From a virus: 21,698 bases of DNA. The DNA lies in the IMG/VR virus record IMGVR_UViG_3300025120_000655, positions 1-21,698 of that record, one strand, 5' to 3'. The first letter of the stretch is position 1. Every line of letters begins with the position of its first letter. The position numbers and the translations under genes are program-made. Shown piece after piece: positions 1,322 to 13,870 of this stretch. A model generated the notes under the pieces. The model did no database searches. It had not been told where the DNA came from and worked only from the letters and a program-made list of their open reading frames with translations.

Positions 1322-2215
1322 TTATTTTGCTTTAGCGACGTCTGGTTGTAGTTTCTTTGCATCTGGTGAATTGTTAAACTGTCTTGTCCAACTTGGATTT
1401 AATCCGTTTTGTTCAAGTATATCATCACGTATGTTCTGATTCTTCTTTTCGATGTTTAACACTCTTGTAAAACTATTGGTAATAGTAGCAGTGTAATATG
1501 CAAATGGATTTTGACTTTTGCTTTCGTCAAACTGTAGTCCAATTTGACTCAGTTGTAGCAATGCTTGTCCACGCATCTCTTCGTTGTATGTGTAACCACG
1601 CCAGTTGCTACGTGTAGCATAACGCTCACACAACTTGATAAACATGTGTGCTAGTTTGTCTGTCATTTTGCCATGGTCTTTTGAAAAGTGTCCGTTTTCC
1701 ATTCCGCCAACCCAATGACTTTTACCTACAATGTATGGAACTTTGTCTTCATCAATCATGTAGTGCCAGAAAGGAGGAAAGTTTAGTTTGACATAATTCA
1801 AGTCCTGTTCAACTTCTTCCATAAGTTCCTGCAATCCATCATCTTCGACGTTTACATCATCCATTTCTAGCAGTTCTTCGAGTTTAGACTTTTTCTTTTC
1901 CTGTGCTTTGGTTAGTTTCTTAGGTACCATTGGAATATGTTCCCAACAAATTACACGGAATACCAGTTCTTGATTGTTTAACTTTGTAGGATCTACAATC
2001 TCACCTGTTTCTCTCTTAATTCTATCTGCTTTGTTGCGTCTTGCTTCTGCAACAGTACGTTGGTTGATCTTATCAACACTAGGCACAATAATATCATACT
2101 GTGCATACTCTCGTTCCATATAGGAACAGTAGGTATTTTTACTTTTCCAAACTTCTTTTAGTATATCTCTATTATTTAGATAATTTACTTTTTTAGGTGG
2201 TTTCACCGGTGGCAT
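1322..2215 (-). CDS. 55: gp55-like sigma factor for late transcription
   Basis: A 297-residue homologue of T4 gp55, the phage sigma factor that replaces sigma70 on host RNA polymerase and recognises the TATAAATA-type late promoter. The sigma-like core is at residues 172-282 and includes FSKDHGKMTDKL, RYATRSNWRGYTY, EEMRGQALLQLSQIGLQFD, NPFAYYT and NSFTRVLNIEKKNQN. T4 gp55 is about 185 residues; this one has a long N-terminal part (1-98, with DLVFRV-type ELVFRVICWEHIP) and an acidic, lysine-rich linker at 101-142. The start at 2215 is chosen over an ATG at 2257 because AAGGAG lies just upstream of 2215 and 2257 is upstream of the predicted transcription start. The C-terminus (KLQPDVAKAK) lacks the hydrophobic-acidic tail that T4 gp55 uses to bind the sliding clamp. 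A strong sigma70-type promoter precedes the gene. Head of the leftward operon. Confidence 0.94.
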   Translation of the reverse strand: MPPVKPPKKVNYLNNRDILKEVWKSKNTYCSYMEREYAQYDIIVPSVDKINQRTVAEARRNKADRIKRETGEIVDPTKLNNQELVFRVICWEHIPMVPKKLTKAQEKKKSKLEELLEMDDVNVEDDGLQELMEEVEQDLNYVKLNFPPFWHYMIDEDKVPYIVGKSHWVGGMENGHFSKDHGKMTDKLAHMFIKLCERYATRSNWRGYTYNEEMRGQALLQLSQIGLQFDESKSQNPFAYYTATITNSFTRVLNIEKKNQNIRDDILEQNGLNPSWTRQFNNSPDAKKLQPDVAKAK

Positions 2216-2245: not shown

Positions 2246-2274
2246 ATTATACAACATTACTTATCAGAAGTCAA
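2246..2274 (-). promoter_or_regulatory. sigma70-type promoter for the gp55 operon
   Basis: On the minus strand TTGACT (2269-2274) is followed by exactly 17 bases and then TATAAT (2246-2251), a near-consensus sigma70 promoter. Transcription would start near 2239, giving a leader of about 23 bases that contains the AAGGAG ribosome site of gp55. A host-sigma promoter for the late sigma factor fits early or middle expression. The start position is inferred. Confidence 0.85.
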
Positions 2275-2279
2275 TCATT

Positions 2280-2291
2280 AACTACGTAGTT
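2280..2291. promoter_or_regulatory. 12-bp perfect palindrome, candidate operator between divergent promoters
   Basis: AACTACGTAGTT is a perfect inverted repeat. It lies 5 bp upstream of the -35 box of the leftward gp55 promoter. Its core ACTACGTAGT (2281-2290) is exactly 10 bp upstream of the rightward late box CATAAATA. The same core with the same spacing recurs at 10417-10426. Function is inferred: a dimeric DNA-binding protein site is the simplest reading. A terminator is unlikely because no transcript should cross this divergent gap. Confidence 0.6.
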
Positions 2292-2300
2292 TTTGGTAAG

Positions 2301-2308
2301 CATAAATA
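2301..2308 (+). promoter_or_regulatory. Late promoter box CATAAATA for gp48
   Basis: CATAAATA matches 7 of 8 bases of the T4 late consensus TATAAATA and the NATAAATA form seen in marine T4-like phages. It lies 17 bases before the gp48 ATG. Start of transcription about 6 bases downstream leaves a short leader holding GAGGAG (2315-2320). It probably drives the rightward baseplate operon with RNA polymerase carrying gp55. Confidence 0.82.
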
Positions 2309-7782: not shown

Positions 7783-10023
7783 ATGGCTAACGAAAATTAT
7801 CAAAGAAGTTCAGGAGTAGCAAAAAACTTTAAACCAGATGTCGGCGGAACTCCGGCTGATAGTGGACCGTTTATTGGAGAAGTGGTTAATAATGTTGACC
7901 CAACCAGAAGCGGAAGGTTGCAAGTTTTTCTAACACACTTAGCAGGTGCTGATAAAAATACCAAAAGCCTTTGGCGCACAGTCAGTTACCTCAGTCCTTT
8001 CTACGGATATACCCAACAGAGTGCACCGCAACCTACAGGACCTGGCAGTTTTACAGGTAACAATCAAAGTTACGGTTTTTGGGGAACTCCGCCGGACTTA
8101 GGAACAAAAGTTTTATGTTTTTTTGTAAACGGCGACCCATCTCAAGGTTATTATATGGGCATGCCAATACAGTCAGGAATAAATCACATGTTACCGGCAA
8201 TCGGAGCAAGTGACAATTTTATCGATGACAGTAATTCTCCACTATTTGCAAACCAGAAGAGATTGCCTGTAGTAGAAATCAACAGTGCAAATCCTGCAAT
8301 CAGAGAAAATCCTAGATTTTTTGATCAAACAAAACCAGTACATAGCGTACTAGCTGGACAAATGCTCAGCCAAGGTGTAATTGCAGACCCGTTGATCGGG
8401 CCTATTACTTCTAATAGTCAAAGAGAGTCACCAAGTTCGTGTTTTGGTATCAGTACACCTGGAAGGCCAGTTTTTTCGGGAGGACTAACAGATGCACAGT
8501 TAGAAGAGAAGTTAAACAGTTCAACTTTACAACCAAATGAAGTCAATGTAATTGGTCGTAAAGGCGGACATAGTCTTGTCATGGACGATGGAAGTCAGAG
8601 TAACGAAGATAATCTTATTAGATTGCGTACTAGCGGTGGACATCAAATAATGATGAACGACACACCTGATGGACAGACTATCCATATTATGCATGCAAAT
8701 GGACAAGCATGGGTAGAACTAGGGAAAGAAGGCACAATTGATGTGTATGCTGCAAACAGTTTAAACATTAGAAGTGCCGGCGAAATAAACATGCATGCGG
8801 ATAAGAACATTAACTTTAATAGCGAAAACGGTAGTATAAACATGCATGCCAAAGCGGCTATGAGTTTAGAAAGTGCTAGTCTTTCGTTAACAGGTACAAA
8901 CAGTTTACTAGCATATAGTAAAAGTATGATTGGTTTAAAAAGTGACAGTGCATTAATGCTTAAAAGCAACACCGGTTCATGGGGAGCAGGTTCGGGACTT
9001 ACGCTTGAAGCAGGGTGTATAAAATTAAATTCAGGTGCCGCAGGTGACGTACCAAAAGCACAAGAAATACCAAAACGTAGATTACCAGATACAAAATTTG
9101 ATGCAAGTCAGGGTTGGATACCAGAGCCGGCTGCAATAGAAACTATTGTTACTCGAGCTCCAACGCACGAACCATACGCTGAGCGTGGCACCGGCGTAAA
9201 CACAATCACTAACTTGTCAAGCACTAGTGTAAATGAGGTGCCTCTCGAGCCAAAAACTCAAGAAGCAGTTGATAAAACTACAACAACTGAAATTACAAAA
9301 ATTGAAAAAGGTGACTACGAAGCACAGAAGTCAGCAACAAGTAATGTTGGAAAGATTGCTCCAACAAAAGTTACTGGTATGTTGGCACAATCAAGTAAAC
9401 TTGTAGCACAGAAATCAAATGAAATATCTAATGCCAAGGGTGTTGGTAAGTTTGGATTTGGTGCAGTTGAACTAGAGGATGCAGGATTTTTGAAGCCGGG
9501 TACTGCTGACTTTTTCCTTAAGGATGCTACGTCTGATCTAAACACTGTACTAAGCAGTTCAAGTGTGTGGAGCGGGAATCAAGGCATAAACGGTGTAAGC
9601 GATTTTTTAAACAATGAGTCAATACAGGATTTGACTAAAACTGATTTATTTACAAAAGGTCTAAACAGTTTACAAAATGCAGGCATTGTTACTGGTTTAG
9701 AAAACGAGGCAGACTTAGCAGGACTGGTAAGCGGTGCTAGTAAATTTGGAGCTGACGCAGTAAAAAAATGGACACAAGGTAGTGCAATACTAGGGCAAAC
9801 TTTTAACGGCGCTCTTAGCGGAAACATAACTGCTGGACAGATGAATGAACTGGTTAAAGGCGGGCAGTATGCAGTTAATCTTACACAACAAAAGATCAGT
9901 AGCGAAATACAAGGCTTTACTACTAGTAGTACAGGCACAACCGGAACTGTGATACGTAGTGAAATTGATACGGCAGTACAGACAGTAATTGCTAGTCAAA
10001 AAGTCACAGGAATAGAAACATAA
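7783..10023 (+). CDS. 5: gp5-like baseplate hub spike (OB fold plus beta-helix), no internal lysozyme
   Basis: 746 residues against 575 in T4. Residues 27-130 are the N-terminal OB fold (FIGEVVNNVDPTRSGRLQVFL ... GFWGTPPDLGTKVLCFF). Residues 258-418 are the VgrG/gp5 type triple beta-helix, with GHSLVMDDG, RTSGGHQIMMND, a GQAWVELGKEG turn and repeating short strands (INMHADKNINF, INMHAKAAMSL). T4 gp5 has a lysozyme domain between these two; here the linker of about 125 residues lacks it. A C-terminal extension (420-746) follows the spike and includes a region near 550-700 that resembles a degenerate lysozyme-like domain. gp5 forms the trimeric puncturing needle at the centre of the baseplate. 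The ribosome site TAAGGA overlaps the preceding stop codon. The hub identity is secure; the role of the extension is not. Confidence 0.9.
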   Translation: MANENYQRSSGVAKNFKPDVGGTPADSGPFIGEVVNNVDPTRSGRLQVFLTHLAGADKNTKSLWRTVSYLSPFYGYTQQSAPQPTGPGSFTGNNQSYGFWGTPPDLGTKVLCFFVNGDPSQGYYMGMPIQSGINHMLPAIGASDNFIDDSNSPLFANQKRLPVVEINSANPAIRENPRFFDQTKPVHSVLAGQMLSQGVIADPLIGPITSNSQRESPSSCFGISTPGRPVFSGGLTDAQLEEKLNSSTLQPNEVNVIGRKGGHSLVMDDGSQSNEDNLIRLRTSGGHQIMMNDTPDGQTIHIMHANGQAWVELGKEGTIDVYAANSLNIRSAGEINMHADKNINFNSENGSINMHAKAAMSLESASLSLTGTNSLLAYSKSMIGLKSDSALMLKSNTGSWGAGSGLTLEAGCIKLNSGAAGDVPKAQEIPKRRLPDTKFDASQGWIPEPAAIETIVTRAPTHEPYAERGTGVNTITNLSSTSVNEVPLEPKTQEAVDKTTTTEITKIEKGDYEAQKSATSNVGKIAPTKVTGMLAQSSKLVAQKSNEISNAKGVGKFGFGAVELEDAGFLKPGTADFFLKDATSDLNTVLSSSSVWSGNQGINGVSDFLNNESIQDLTKTDLFTKGLNSLQNAGIVTGLENEADLAGLVSGASKFGADAVKKWTQGSAILGQTFNGALSGNITAGQMNELVKGGQYAVNLTQQKISSEIQGFTTSSTGTTGTVIRSEIDTAVQTVIASQKVTGIET

Positions 10024-10030
10024 ATACGTT

Positions 10031-10412: not shown

Positions 10413-10430
10413 ATAAACTACGTAGTTTAT
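10413..10430. promoter_or_regulatory. 18-bp perfect palindrome upstream of the gp6 late promoter
   Basis: ATAAACTACGTAGTTTAT is a perfect inverted repeat in the gap after gp25. Its core ACTACGTAGT (10417-10426) is 10 bp upstream of GATAAATA, the same arrangement as at 2281-2308. In RNA it could form a 7-bp A/U-rich hairpin with an ACGU loop followed by UUUU. A weak terminator for the upstream genes is therefore an alternative or additional function. Confidence 0.6.
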
Positions 10431-10436
10431 TTTAAT

Positions 10437-10444
10437 GATAAATA
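10437..10444 (+). promoter_or_regulatory. Late promoter box GATAAATA for gp6
   Basis: GATAAATA matches 7 of 8 bases of the T4 late consensus and is 18 bases from the gp6 ATG, nearly the same as the 17 bases before gp48. The leader would contain TAAGGAAA (10451-10458). An internal late promoter here would let gp6 and gp7 be made independently of the upstream baseplate genes. Confidence 0.8.
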
Positions 10445-10462
10445 CTAGGTAAGGAAATACAT

Positions 10463-13400
10463 ATGGCTAAAACTACAAGACAAACTAGTATCTTTGGCGT
10501 TGAAGATTGGAAAAGAATTTACCAAACTTACCGCGAAGCAGACTTTCAGAGTTATGACTTTGAAACCTTGCGTAAGAGCTTTATAGACTACATTCGTTTA
10601 TATTACCCAGAAAGTTTTAATGACTATACTGAATCCAGTGAATTTATTGCACTACTTGACGTTATGGCATTTATGGGTCAAGCAGGTAGTTTTAGGAACG
10701 ATCTAAACACAAGGGAAAACTTCATCGACACTGCTGAAAGAAGAGACAGTGTAAACAGATTAGCAGAACTAGTAAGTTACACACCAAAGCGGAATACTGC
10801 AGCCGAAGGATTTTTAAAAGTACAAAGCATTAGTACTACAGAGGGCGTAATTGATTTTACAGGTGTAAATCTTTCAAATATTACAGTCAACTGGAACGAT
10901 ACTACAAATGCAAACTGGCTAGAACAGTTTACAGTAATAGTAAATGCATCATTGGATAATAGTCAACGATTTGGACGTCCGGGCAATTCGCAAACTATTT
11001 TAGGCGTACAGACCGAAGAGTATGCAATTAATCTTTTGCAAGGTTTCTTGCCTGTGATTCCATTTACTAGCGAGATAAACGGCACTGAAATGTCCTTTGA
11101 GGCAGTTTGTGCAACATCTCAAGATAAATCATTTGTTTACGAGCCATCACCTGCACCAAATGGTGCGTTTAACATTCTATACAGGAACGATAAGCAAGGG
11201 TATGCTAGTGCAAACACAGGTTTCTTTTTCTTATTCAAACAAGGCAGTTTACAAGACCTAGATTTTAATCTCGGAGAACGTATTTCAAATAGAGTTGTTA
11301 ATGTGAATATCGAAGGAATTAACAACGATGACACTTGGTTATATCAACTAGACTCAACAGGCAACATCGAAAACGAATGGGAATATGTTGAAAATATCTA
11401 TTCAGGAGCGGTTGAAGAACTAACTCCAGATCAGCGTAGATACTTTACTATTACGTCAAGAACTAACGACCAAATAAATTTAAACTTTGGTGATGGCGTT
11501 TTTAGTAGTATACCAGTAGGAAGTTTTAGAACTTATGTTCGTGCATCAAATGGATTGAGTTATATTATAAATCCAGACGAAATGCAAAATGTGACTGTAT
11601 CAATTGCGTATATAAGTCGTACTGGCCGTAACGAAACATTGACACTTACTTGTGCTTTAACACAACCAGTTAGCAATGCCGCTAACAGAGAAAACATTAA
11701 CGACATAAAGCAACGTGCGCCTGCTAGATACTATACACAAAATAGAATGGTCAACGGCGAAGACTACAATAATTTTCCATATACACTTTATTCAACTATA
11801 ATCAAGTCCAAGGCTGTTAATCGTAGCTCAATTGGCACTAGTAGATATTTGGATCTTGTTGATATCACTGGAAAATACTCTAGCACAAATATTTTTGCGT
11901 CAGACGGATTAATCTACGAAAACACCGCAGTGCCTAGTTTTACTTTTACATATGTGGACCAAAACGACATAACTGATGTTATAGTAAATCAAGTAGAACC
12001 TGTACTAGCAAGTAGAGGAATGCAAGAATTCTATTATGAAAACTTTACACGTCCAGACTTAACTGTGTTAAATTTAAATTGGAGTCAAAGTACAACAAGC
12101 AACAATGAGACAACAGGTTTTTTTAGATTTGTTGCAAGTAATGCACCAGCACCGGTTGGACCGTCAGCAAGTGATAATAAAAAATATATAGCCAAAGGCG
12201 GACTTATAAAATTTACACCGCCAGTAGGACAATATTTTACTGCTACTAATAGACTAGCAGTCGGTTCGCCTACGTTACCCGGAGATAAAATGATATTGTG
12301 GGCAACTGTGACTGCACTCGAACTTGATGGCACAAACTTTGGCACAGGTAATAATGCAGATGGTACAGGTCCAGTGACACTGAATAATTTTATTCCAACT
12401 AACGCAATTCCTACTGAAGTTATACCAAATTTTATTACTGATTTACCAACTGCGATAGAAACAACTATACGTGAAAACATTGAGCTGTACAGAGACTTTG
12501 GACTTGGTTATGACAACTTAACAGGCACATGGTATGTAATCACAAGTACTAATTTAAACCCAGCCATCACATTTAGTCTTGTAAATGCACAAAATACATC
12601 CGGCACTGGATTAGATAATTCATGGTTAGTAGCATTTGAAACAGACGGTGTAACATATACTGTTAGTTCTAGAAGTTTAAACCGCTTTTGGGCTAGTGTA
12701 TTAGAAACACGTTTCTTTTATGATGGAACACAAAAAGTTTATGATCCAAAAACAGGAACAGTTATAAACGACTTTGTAAATGTATTGAAAACCAATAGTT
12801 TGCCAGATTCAAGTGCGACACTTAACAGTGATGAAGTCTTAGATATTATCGATCAGCCAGTCGAAACAGATGGCTTTGTAGATGACTTTCGAGTAAGAAT
12901 AAGTTATAAAGATTCAGACAATGATGGGATTCCTGACAATCCAGATTATTTTCAAACACTAGTTGCTCCTCTTGTAAACCCAAATAATAAAAGAGTTTAC
13001 CTACAACAAACAGTAGACTTTGATAATTTAGAAAGATACTTGCCATTAGCGGCTGGTGTAGTAGTAGGATCACTTGCAACTAAGGCAGCAATAGAACTAG
13101 TAAAAAGTGAATATCCTGACTTGCAGGTATTTTATGCCTACACCGATAAAAAGTTTTATAAACTATCAGTAGATTACGAAGGGGTCAGAACTATTGCAGT
13201 TGTAACAGGTTATCAAACGTTTGTTGGCAGACAAGGATTGTATTTTCAGTACAGACACAATGCACCATTAAGCCGACGTATCGATCCTGGAACAACAAAT
13301 ATAATCGACATCTACTTGATTACTCAAGCATACTATATTGCATACCAAAATTATATTCGTGATAGCACAAACACTGTTGTCGAGCCAACAAAGCCGACTA

Positions 13401-13870
13401 TCGACGAGCTCACAACTAGTTATAGTACACTTGATCAGTACAAAATGATCAGTGACAATATTATTCTAAACAGTGTTACTTTTAAACCTCTATTTGGTAC
13501 TAAAAGTTCAGTAGAACTACGTGCTACAATAAAGTGTGTAAAGAATACAACAAGCACTGCTAGTGTAAGTGAAATTAAAAGCCAAATTGTAAGTGCAATG
13601 AACTCGTATTTTACAATCGATAATTGGGATTTTGGAGATACATTTTTCTTTAGTGAACTTAGTGCGTTCTTACATGACAGACTAGGAAGTATTATAAGTT
13701 CAGTCGTGCTTGTGCCAACTGATCCTCTAAAGAGTTTTGGAGACTTATATGAAATACGTAGTCAGGCAAATGAAATATTTGTAAACGCCGCTACAGTAAA
13801 TGATGTTCAAATAATTGATGCATTAACTGGTAGTCAATTACGTACTGCACCAAATAGTGGAGTAGTATAA
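10463..13870 (+). CDS. 6: gp6-like baseplate wedge subunit, enlarged
   Basis: 1135 residues against 660 in T4. The N-terminal 110 residues carry the marine gp6 signature: LRKSFIDYIRLYYPESF, ALLDVMAFMGQAGSFRNDLNTRENF and RRDSVNRLAELVSYTPKRN. A baseplate J-type core is seen at residues 341-365 (NFGDGVFSSIPVGSF, then YVRASNGL). Near 410-440 is RYYTQNRMVNGEDYNNFP. Residues 817-828 read DSDNDGIPDNPD, a calcium-loop-like pattern. The C-terminal part (about 980-1135) has alternating strands and helices, including NSYFTIDNWDFGDTFFFSEL, typical of gp6/J-protein ends. gp6 forms the ring that holds the wedges together around the hub and drives the shape change before sheath contraction. A good ribosome site (AAGGAA) precedes the ATG. 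The extra length probably forms added surface domains. Confidence 0.93.
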   Translation: MAKTTRQTSIFGVEDWKRIYQTYREADFQSYDFETLRKSFIDYIRLYYPESFNDYTESSEFIALLDVMAFMGQAGSFRNDLNTRENFIDTAERRDSVNRLAELVSYTPKRNTAAEGFLKVQSISTTEGVIDFTGVNLSNITVNWNDTTNANWLEQFTVIVNASLDNSQRFGRPGNSQTILGVQTEEYAINLLQGFLPVIPFTSEINGTEMSFEAVCATSQDKSFVYEPSPAPNGAFNILYRNDKQGYASANTGFFFLFKQGSLQDLDFNLGERISNRVVNVNIEGINNDDTWLYQLDSTGNIENEWEYVENIYSGAVEELTPDQRRYFTITSRTNDQINLNFGDGVFSSIPVGSFRTYVRASNGLSYIINPDEMQNVTVSIAYISRTGRNETLTLTCALTQPVSNAANRENINDIKQRAPARYYTQNRMVNGEDYNNFPYTLYSTIIKSKAVNRSSIGTSRYLDLVDITGKYSSTNIFASDGLIYENTAVPSFTFTYVDQNDITDVIVNQVEPVLASRGMQEFYYENFTRPDLTVLNLNWSQSTTSNNETTGFFRFVASNAPAPVGPSASDNKKYIAKGGLIKFTPPVGQYFTATNRLAVGSPTLPGDKMILWATVTALELDGTNFGTGNNADGTGPVTLNNFIPTNAIPTEVIPNFITDLPTAIETTIRENIELYRDFGLGYDNLTGTWYVITSTNLNPAITFSLVNAQNTSGTGLDNSWLVAFETDGVTYTVSSRSLNRFWASVLETRFFYDGTQKVYDPKTGTVINDFVNVLKTNSLPDSSATLNSDEVLDIIDQPVETDGFVDDFRVRISYKDSDNDGIPDNPDYFQTLVAPLVNPNNKRVYLQQTVDFDNLERYLPLAAGVVVGSLATKAAIELVKSEYPDLQVFYAYTDKKFYKLSVDYEGVRTIAVVTGYQTFVGRQGLYFQYRHNAPLSRRIDPGTTNIIDIYLITQAYYIAYQNYIRDSTNTVVEPTKPTIDELTTSYSTLDQYKMISDNIILNSVTFKPLFGTKSSVELRATIKCVKNTTSTASVSEIKSQIVSAMNSYFTIDNWDFGDTFFFSELSAFLHDRLGSIISSVVLVPTDPLKSFGDLYEIRSQANEIFVNAATVNDVQIIDALTGSQLRTAPNSGVV

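What the first reader, a model, noticed from the sequence alone, without database searches (positions are those of the whole stretch)
2280..2308. Palindrome ACTACGTAGT at a fixed 10-bp distance from the late promoter box: candidate operator for late transcription
ACTACGTAGT at 2281-2290 is followed by 10 bases and then CATAAATA. The only other exact copy in the window (10417-10426) is also followed by exactly 10 bases and then GATAAATA. The spacer sequences differ (TTTTGGTAAG and TTATTTTAAT), so this is not a copied block; palindrome, distance and box are kept. The palindrome centre is 16.5 bp before ATAAATA, about -29 relative to the expected start, which is where a -35 element would be. T4 late promoters are known to have only the TATAAATA box and no -35 element, with activation by gp33 and the sliding clamp. 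A symmetric site at this position suggests a dimeric regulator that helps or blocks gp55-polymerase. I know of no description of such an element in T4-like phages.
Basis: partly seen in the sequence, partly recalled or inferred. Interest (0 to 1): 0.8.

Follow-up and report, generated by a model that had tools for sequence, protein, structure and literature searches.

The report
Palindromic -35 element in tail-gene late promoters
In a group of giant T4-related viruses of bacteria, the switch that turns on tail and baseplate genes late in infection carries a conserved mirror-symmetric DNA site at a fixed distance from the usual late signal, although textbook T4 late promoters have nothing there, so these tail genes probably have their own regulator.

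Summary
AACTACGTAGTT lies just upstream of ATAAATA at 2280-2308 (between the divergent gp55 late-sigma gene and a phrog_12050 structural gene) and at 10416-10444 (before baseplate gene gp6). In relatives found by protein similarity alone, not by the motif, the best match to this 12-mer falls uniquely at the same distance (gap 11/12) before gp6 (35/43), tail tube (22/28) and the gp55-adjacent structural gene (32/63); shuffles give 1-3. The element is kept while spacer and upstream DNA diverge. Its general form is WAACTNNGCNGTTWW; the perfect palindrome is the most symmetric version. In seven long contigs (1.32 Mb), 315 late-type boxes precede ORFs; 22 carry the element, 20 of them at four genes: phrog_12050, gp6, tail tube and a phrog_11259 gene. 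So it is not a general late operator but marks two to four tail-cluster promoters per genome. Best explanation: a symmetric DNA-binding factor at about -34 to -23 acts with gp55-polymerase, more likely as activator (spacing strict to 1 bp) than repressor. The binding protein is not identified; a conserved 89-aa winged-HTH protein is only a candidate. I found no published description. New variant of a known kind.

The parts
2280..2291 (+). Palindromic element 1, AACTACGTAGTT, about -34 to -23 of the late promoter of the phrog_12050 structural gene
   Evidence: orthologous elements
2302..2308 (+). Late (-10 type) box ATAAATA of promoter 1; inferred start near 2314 by analogy with T4
   Evidence: T4 numbering from PMC2988020
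2326..4236 (+). Virion structural protein (phrog_12050), first gene of baseplate operon 1; ATG 17 nt after the box with Shine-Dalgarno GAGGA
1322..2215 (-). Late sigma factor gp55 homologue (phrog_12791), divergent from promoter 1; likely ATG at 2215 with its own Shine-Dalgarno
2246..2274 (-). Sigma70-like promoter for gp55 (TTGACT-17-TATAAT), 5 bp beyond element 1; in many relatives this promoter instead overlaps the element
   Evidence: sequence; relatives
10416..10427 (+). Palindromic element 2, AACTACGTAGTT, in the gp25-gp6 intergenic gap, 4 bp after the gp25 stop codon
   Evidence: orthologous elements
10438..10444 (+). Late box ATAAATA of promoter 2; inferred start near 10450
10463..13870 (+). 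Baseplate wedge gp6 (phrog_10646), first gene of baseplate operon 2
10020..10026 (+). Third ATAAATA, 4 nt before the gp25 ATG, without the element: an internal contrast

Best explanation
The two sites are promoter-specific upstream elements of T4-type late promoters. A symmetric DNA-binding factor, most simply a homodimer reading AACNNC half-sites, binds at about -34 to -23, in the -35 region that gp55 (which lacks sigma region 4) and gp33-type factors do not read. From there it most likely contacts the gp55-RNA polymerase at ATAAATA and raises initiation at a small set of tail and baseplate operons (phrog_12050, gp6, tail tube, phrog_11259), giving them separate control within late transcription. 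Shown: conservation, fixed spacing, partial symmetry, restriction to these promoters. Inferred: protein binding, dimer, activation rather than repression, identity of the factor.
For: Independent protein-based scans: best match uniquely at gap 11/12 in 35/43 gp6, 22/28 tail-tube and 32/63 gp55-adjacent promoters, against shuffle means 2.0, 1.2, 3.1. At gp6, pairwise identity is 0.65 in the element against 0.34 in the spacer and 0.37 upstream; at tail tube 0.62 against 0.36. Four unrelated promoters share it. Tail-tube positions -18/-15 relative to the box change together (A-T 11, G-C 8 of 28), as expected for two equivalent half-sites. Spacing is kept to 1 bp at gp6 and tail tube where no divergent gene exists, and in the window where the gp55 sigma70 promoter sits elsewhere: the conserved relation is to the late box, as for an element whose ligand touches polymerase. 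Whole-contig scan: 11 and 11 hits at the two true offsets, 0-3 at each of the other 32. T4 late promoters have no -35 conservation and gp33 does not read DNA (PMC2988020).
Against: No binding protein, no expression data, no mapped start. Most gp6 elements are not true palindromes in the core (inner pairs complementary in only about a third), so a single asymmetric reader is possible. About half of the gp55-adjacent boxes have no clear element. Before the MSRPKP gene the same palindrome sits at gap 6-8 or 15-16, which a strict activator geometry does not explain. Cultured relatives mostly lack it.
Confidence: 0.55

Rival explanations
1. Repressor operator: a phage dimer binds between -34 and -23 and blocks gp55-polymerase at tail and baseplate operons, delaying or limiting them until derepressed.
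For: Operators between -35 and -10 are a usual repressor position (general knowledge). The element overlaps the gp55 sigma70 promoter in many relatives, where binding should block it. The variable gap at the MSRPKP promoter suits a repressor.
Against: Repressor operators seldom keep one spacing to 1 bp over four unrelated promoters and such sequence divergence.
Confidence: 0.22
2. Built-in -35 box: the element is read by the late polymerase itself (a gp55 extension, a gp33-like beta-flap protein or a host factor), making these simply the strongest late promoters.
For: Position and 1-bp tolerance resemble a -35/-10 spacer. The gp55 homologue (311 aa as called) has a long conserved N-terminal part before the stretch that matches the T4-type late sigma family (residues 193-292).
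Against: Most late-type boxes in the same genomes lack any form of the element. T4 gp33 does not recognise DNA. The element is partly symmetric, unlike a sigma4 target.
Confidence: 0.15
3. Operator of the divergent gp55 promoter: the element regulates sigma70 transcription of the late sigma gene, and the distance to the late box is incidental.
For: Many relatives have TTGAC-17-TATAAT for gp55 with the element inside the spacer.
Against: gp6 and tail-tube copies have no divergent gene, yet the same gap. In the window the gp55 promoter is displaced while the late gap is kept.
Confidence: 0.05
4. RNA signal or terminator remnant at the end of the upstream gene's transcript.
For: Inverted repeat located just after stop codons or after terminators.
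Against: No loop; inner positions at gp6 break pairing in about two thirds of sequences. Tail-tube copies already have a terminator-like T-run upstream. Position is fixed to the promoter box, not to the stop codon.
Confidence: 0.03

Closest known systems
Bacteriophage T4 late promoters (TATAAATA, gp55, gp33, gp45 clamp)
   Same: ATAAATA box before structural genes, a gp55-family late sigma that ends after its region 2-like part
   Different: T4 late promoters show no conservation at -35 and need no upstream recognition (PMC2988020); here a partly symmetric element is conserved at -34 to -23 of a few promoters
ATAAATA late promoters of Rak2-like jumbo phages (CBB, GAP32)
   Same: Related jumbo phages; ATAAATA predicted at 35 places, found before structural genes; gp55 present (PMC5259590)
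   Different: No palindrome reported; RaK2 and GAP32 gp6 upstream regions lack it
T4 middle promoters (MotA box near -30 with a sigma70 -10)
   Same: A phage activator site in place of a -35 box at fixed distance from a -10 element (general knowledge)
   Different: MotA works with sigma70 and AsiA on a non-palindromic box; here the partner box is the gp55 late box and the site is symmetric
NATAAATA late promoters of marine T4-like cyanophages (S-PM2, Syn9)
   Same: Late box sequence (PMC2984593)
   Different: No upstream element described; P-SSM4 has no pattern match

Membership tests
T4-type late promoter | (T/N)ATAAATA box a short distance before late structural genes | tested here: met
   boxes 17-18 nt before the ATG of virion genes
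T4-type late promoter | Phage encodes a gp55-family late sigma | tested here: met
   window 1322-2215, phrog_12791 E=6e-77 and phrog_234 E=1.7e-23
T4-type late promoter | No conserved sequence in the -35 region | tested here: not met
   conserved WAACTNNGCNGTTWW at -24..-9 relative to the box
T4-type late promoter | Transcript start about 6 nt after the box, dependent on gp33 and clamp | not testable with these tools
   no transcript data
MotA-type middle promoter | MotA box with sigma70 -10 TATAAT on the same strand | tested here: not met
   the partner is ATAAATA at both window sites and at gp6 and tail tube in relatives
Sigma70 promoter with spacer operator | TTGAC and TATAAT 17 bp apart flanking the palindrome | tested here: not met
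   met only at gp55-adjacent sites of relatives on the opposite strand; not at either window site
Dimeric HTH operator | Symmetric half-sites and an encoded dimeric DNA-binding protein | tested here: inconclusive
   arms AAC/GTT symmetric, core only partly; HTH_39 protein shared by G016, G018, G026, G001 but not linked to the site

The most novel reading that the evidence does not exclude
Late transcription in these T4-related jumbo phages has a second, gene-specific layer: a dedicated dimeric factor reads a palindromic -35-like element and co-activates gp55-polymerase at just the two to four tail-cluster promoters, so tail and baseplate synthesis is timed separately from other late genes.
Probability: 0.35. 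Interest if true: 0.8.

Novelty: new variant of a known kind. Interest (0 to 1): 0.63.

Why it matters
T4 late transcription is the model in which -10 recognition plus the sliding clamp suffices, with no upstream DNA recognition. A conserved, symmetric, spacing-constrained element confined to tail and baseplate operons would mean that some T4-related lineages regulate subsets of late genes individually. It also yields a sequence signature for finding such promoters in uncultivated phages and a concrete target for finding a new phage regulator.

Tried and rejected
Chance: rejected. Copied block: rejected, spacers and flanks diverge. Control palindrome: its gap-12 peak is one replicated coding family. 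Element as a property of all late promoters: rejected. gp55-operator-only reading: rejected by the gp6 and tail-tube copies. RNA hairpin: not supported. Self-complementarity by offset in the gp55-adjacent set was uninformative, dominated by the divergent TATAAT. Named phages: the strict pattern is at chance level over whole records (3 hits against 8 for the reversed control in the eight named records); the PA5oct 49608-49636 and Phosso 352374-352402 hits are therefore not claimed; only Atu_ph07 has a degenerate copy, ATTAAATTAGTAGTTAAT, at the orthologous place with gap 11. gp33 search: a 100-aa core protein (G018 70276-70578) gave no informative match. Literature: no paper on this sequence or element.

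Full report
What is in the window. The window (21,698 bases, a virus record by itself) is part of a T4-related jumbo phage whose nearest named relatives by protein are Pseudomonas phage PA5oct, Agrobacterium phage Atu_ph07, Sinorhizobium phage Phosso and the Rak2-like phages. It holds, on the minus strand, an SbcD-like nuclease and the late sigma gp55, and on the plus strand a baseplate cluster: phrog_12050 structural protein, a baseplate wedge protein, a large structural protein, gp5-like hub lysozyme, gp25, gp6 and a giant structural protein.

The observation. ACTACGTAGT occurs exactly twice, at 2281-2290 and 10417-10426, each followed by 10 bases and NATAAATA. The shared core is AACTACGTAGTTT. 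The first copy lies between the divergent gp55 gene and the phrog_12050 gene; the second lies in the gap between gp25 and gp6. In what follows 'gap' is the number of bases between ACTACGTAGT and ATAAATA (11 in both window sites).

Collection scan. The downstream genes at 11/12 are of several kinds: gp6, tail tube, phrog_12050 opposite gp55, a gp25-like protein and a baseplate-hub protein. A control palindrome of the same composition gave only one replicated coding family at gap 12.

Tests free of motif selection. Relatives were collected by protein similarity and their upstream DNA examined: gp55, gp6, tail tube. With AACTACGTAGTT fixed beforehand as query, the best match over gaps 3-25 is uniquely at 11/12 in 35 of 43 non-redundant gp6 promoters, 22 of 28 tail-tube promoters and 32 of 63 gp55-adjacent promoters; shuffles give on average 2.0, 1.2 and 3.1. 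In gp6 promoters the element is kept (pairwise identity 0.65) while the spacer (0.34) and upstream DNA (0.37) are not. The consensus is WAACTNNGCNGTTWW: the arms AAC and GTT are strongly conserved and the centre varies, so the perfect palindrome of the window is the most symmetric version. In tail-tube promoters the positions flanking the centre change together (A-T 11, G-C 8 of 28), as two equivalent half-sites would.

How many promoters carry it. In seven long contigs (G021, G016, G018, G001, G026, G031, G029; 1.32 Mb) there are 315 NTAAATA boxes before ORFs. Twenty of the 22 stand before four genes: phrog_12050, gp6, tail tube, and a 200-aa phrog_11259 gene about 20 kb beyond gp6. The 356-kb contig G026 has four. 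Some of the gp6 and tail-tube sites of these contigs were in the training set; the phrog_11259 sites were not. How many of the 315 boxes are active promoters is unknown.

Relation to the gp55 promoter. In many relatives a sigma70-like promoter for gp55 (TTGAC-17-TATAAT) overlaps the element on the other strand. In the window that promoter is displaced (2246-2274), yet the gap to the late box is unchanged, and gp6 and tail-tube copies have no divergent gene. The conserved relation is thus to the late box. An extra effect on gp55 expression remains possible.

Mechanism. By T4 numbering (box -13 to -6, PMC2988020) the element spans about -34 to -23. T4 late promoters have no conservation there, gp55 lacks a -35-reading region and gp33 does not read DNA. 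A fixed distance, tolerance of 1 bp and partial symmetry point to a symmetric DNA-binding factor that touches the polymerase; I favour activation (about 0.55 for the whole statement), with repression (0.22) and a reader built into the polymerase (0.15) as main rivals. The factor is unknown. A winged-helix protein of 89-95 aa (HTH_39, PF14090, E=2.9e-7) is shared by G016, G018, G026 and G001 and has no tblastn match in PA5oct, Atu_ph07, Phosso or RaK2, where the element is absent or degenerate. This is a correlation in few genomes only.

Limits. All evidence is comparative. Contigs are uncultivated and mostly incomplete; hosts are unknown (gp6 relatives occur in contigs binned with Pelagibacter, Marinimicrobia and other marine genomes, which does not prove host). 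The named cultured phages do not carry a convincing element apart from a degenerate copy in Atu_ph07. Before the MSRPKP gene the palindrome has other gaps, 6-8 or 15-16, which is unexplained.

Literature. The papers held describe ATAAATA-type late promoters in T4, cyanophages and Rak2-like phages without an upstream element, and searches for the sequence and for such an element found nothing. The held library is partial, so absence there is not proof of novelty.

Noticed in passing
L003:2288-2350, L021, L047, L004 (upstream of the MSRPKP gene): A 96-aa protein of unknown function (MSRPKP...), shared with PA5oct, Phosso, Atu_ph07 and SCTP-2, has a late box before it; in sublineages the same palindrome lies at gap 6-8 or 15-16, about half a helical turn from 11/12.
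   Followed up: partly
L003, L004, L021, L047 just before the MSRPKP start codon: A short inverted repeat with matching changes on both sides (TATGCGTA/TACGCATA, TATACGTA/TACGTATA, TATACAT/ATGTATA) holds the Shine-Dalgarno in its loop and ends at the ATG: possible 5'-end mRNA hairpin.
   Followed up: no
G018:C1:84435-84683 (homologues in G016, G026): An 82-aa phage protein matches RNA polymerase omega/Rpb6 (PF01192, E=2.2e-12), shared by element-bearing genomes.
   Followed up: no
window 10020-10026; tail-tube loci L597-L676: Many late boxes lie only 4-5 nt before the ATG, implying late mRNAs with almost no leader.
   Followed up: no
L473:7735, L510:4069, L532:496: AACTACGCCGTT preceded by a second GTAGTT and followed by TAAATA at a shorter gap (8-9) before other genes of related phages.
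   Followed up: no
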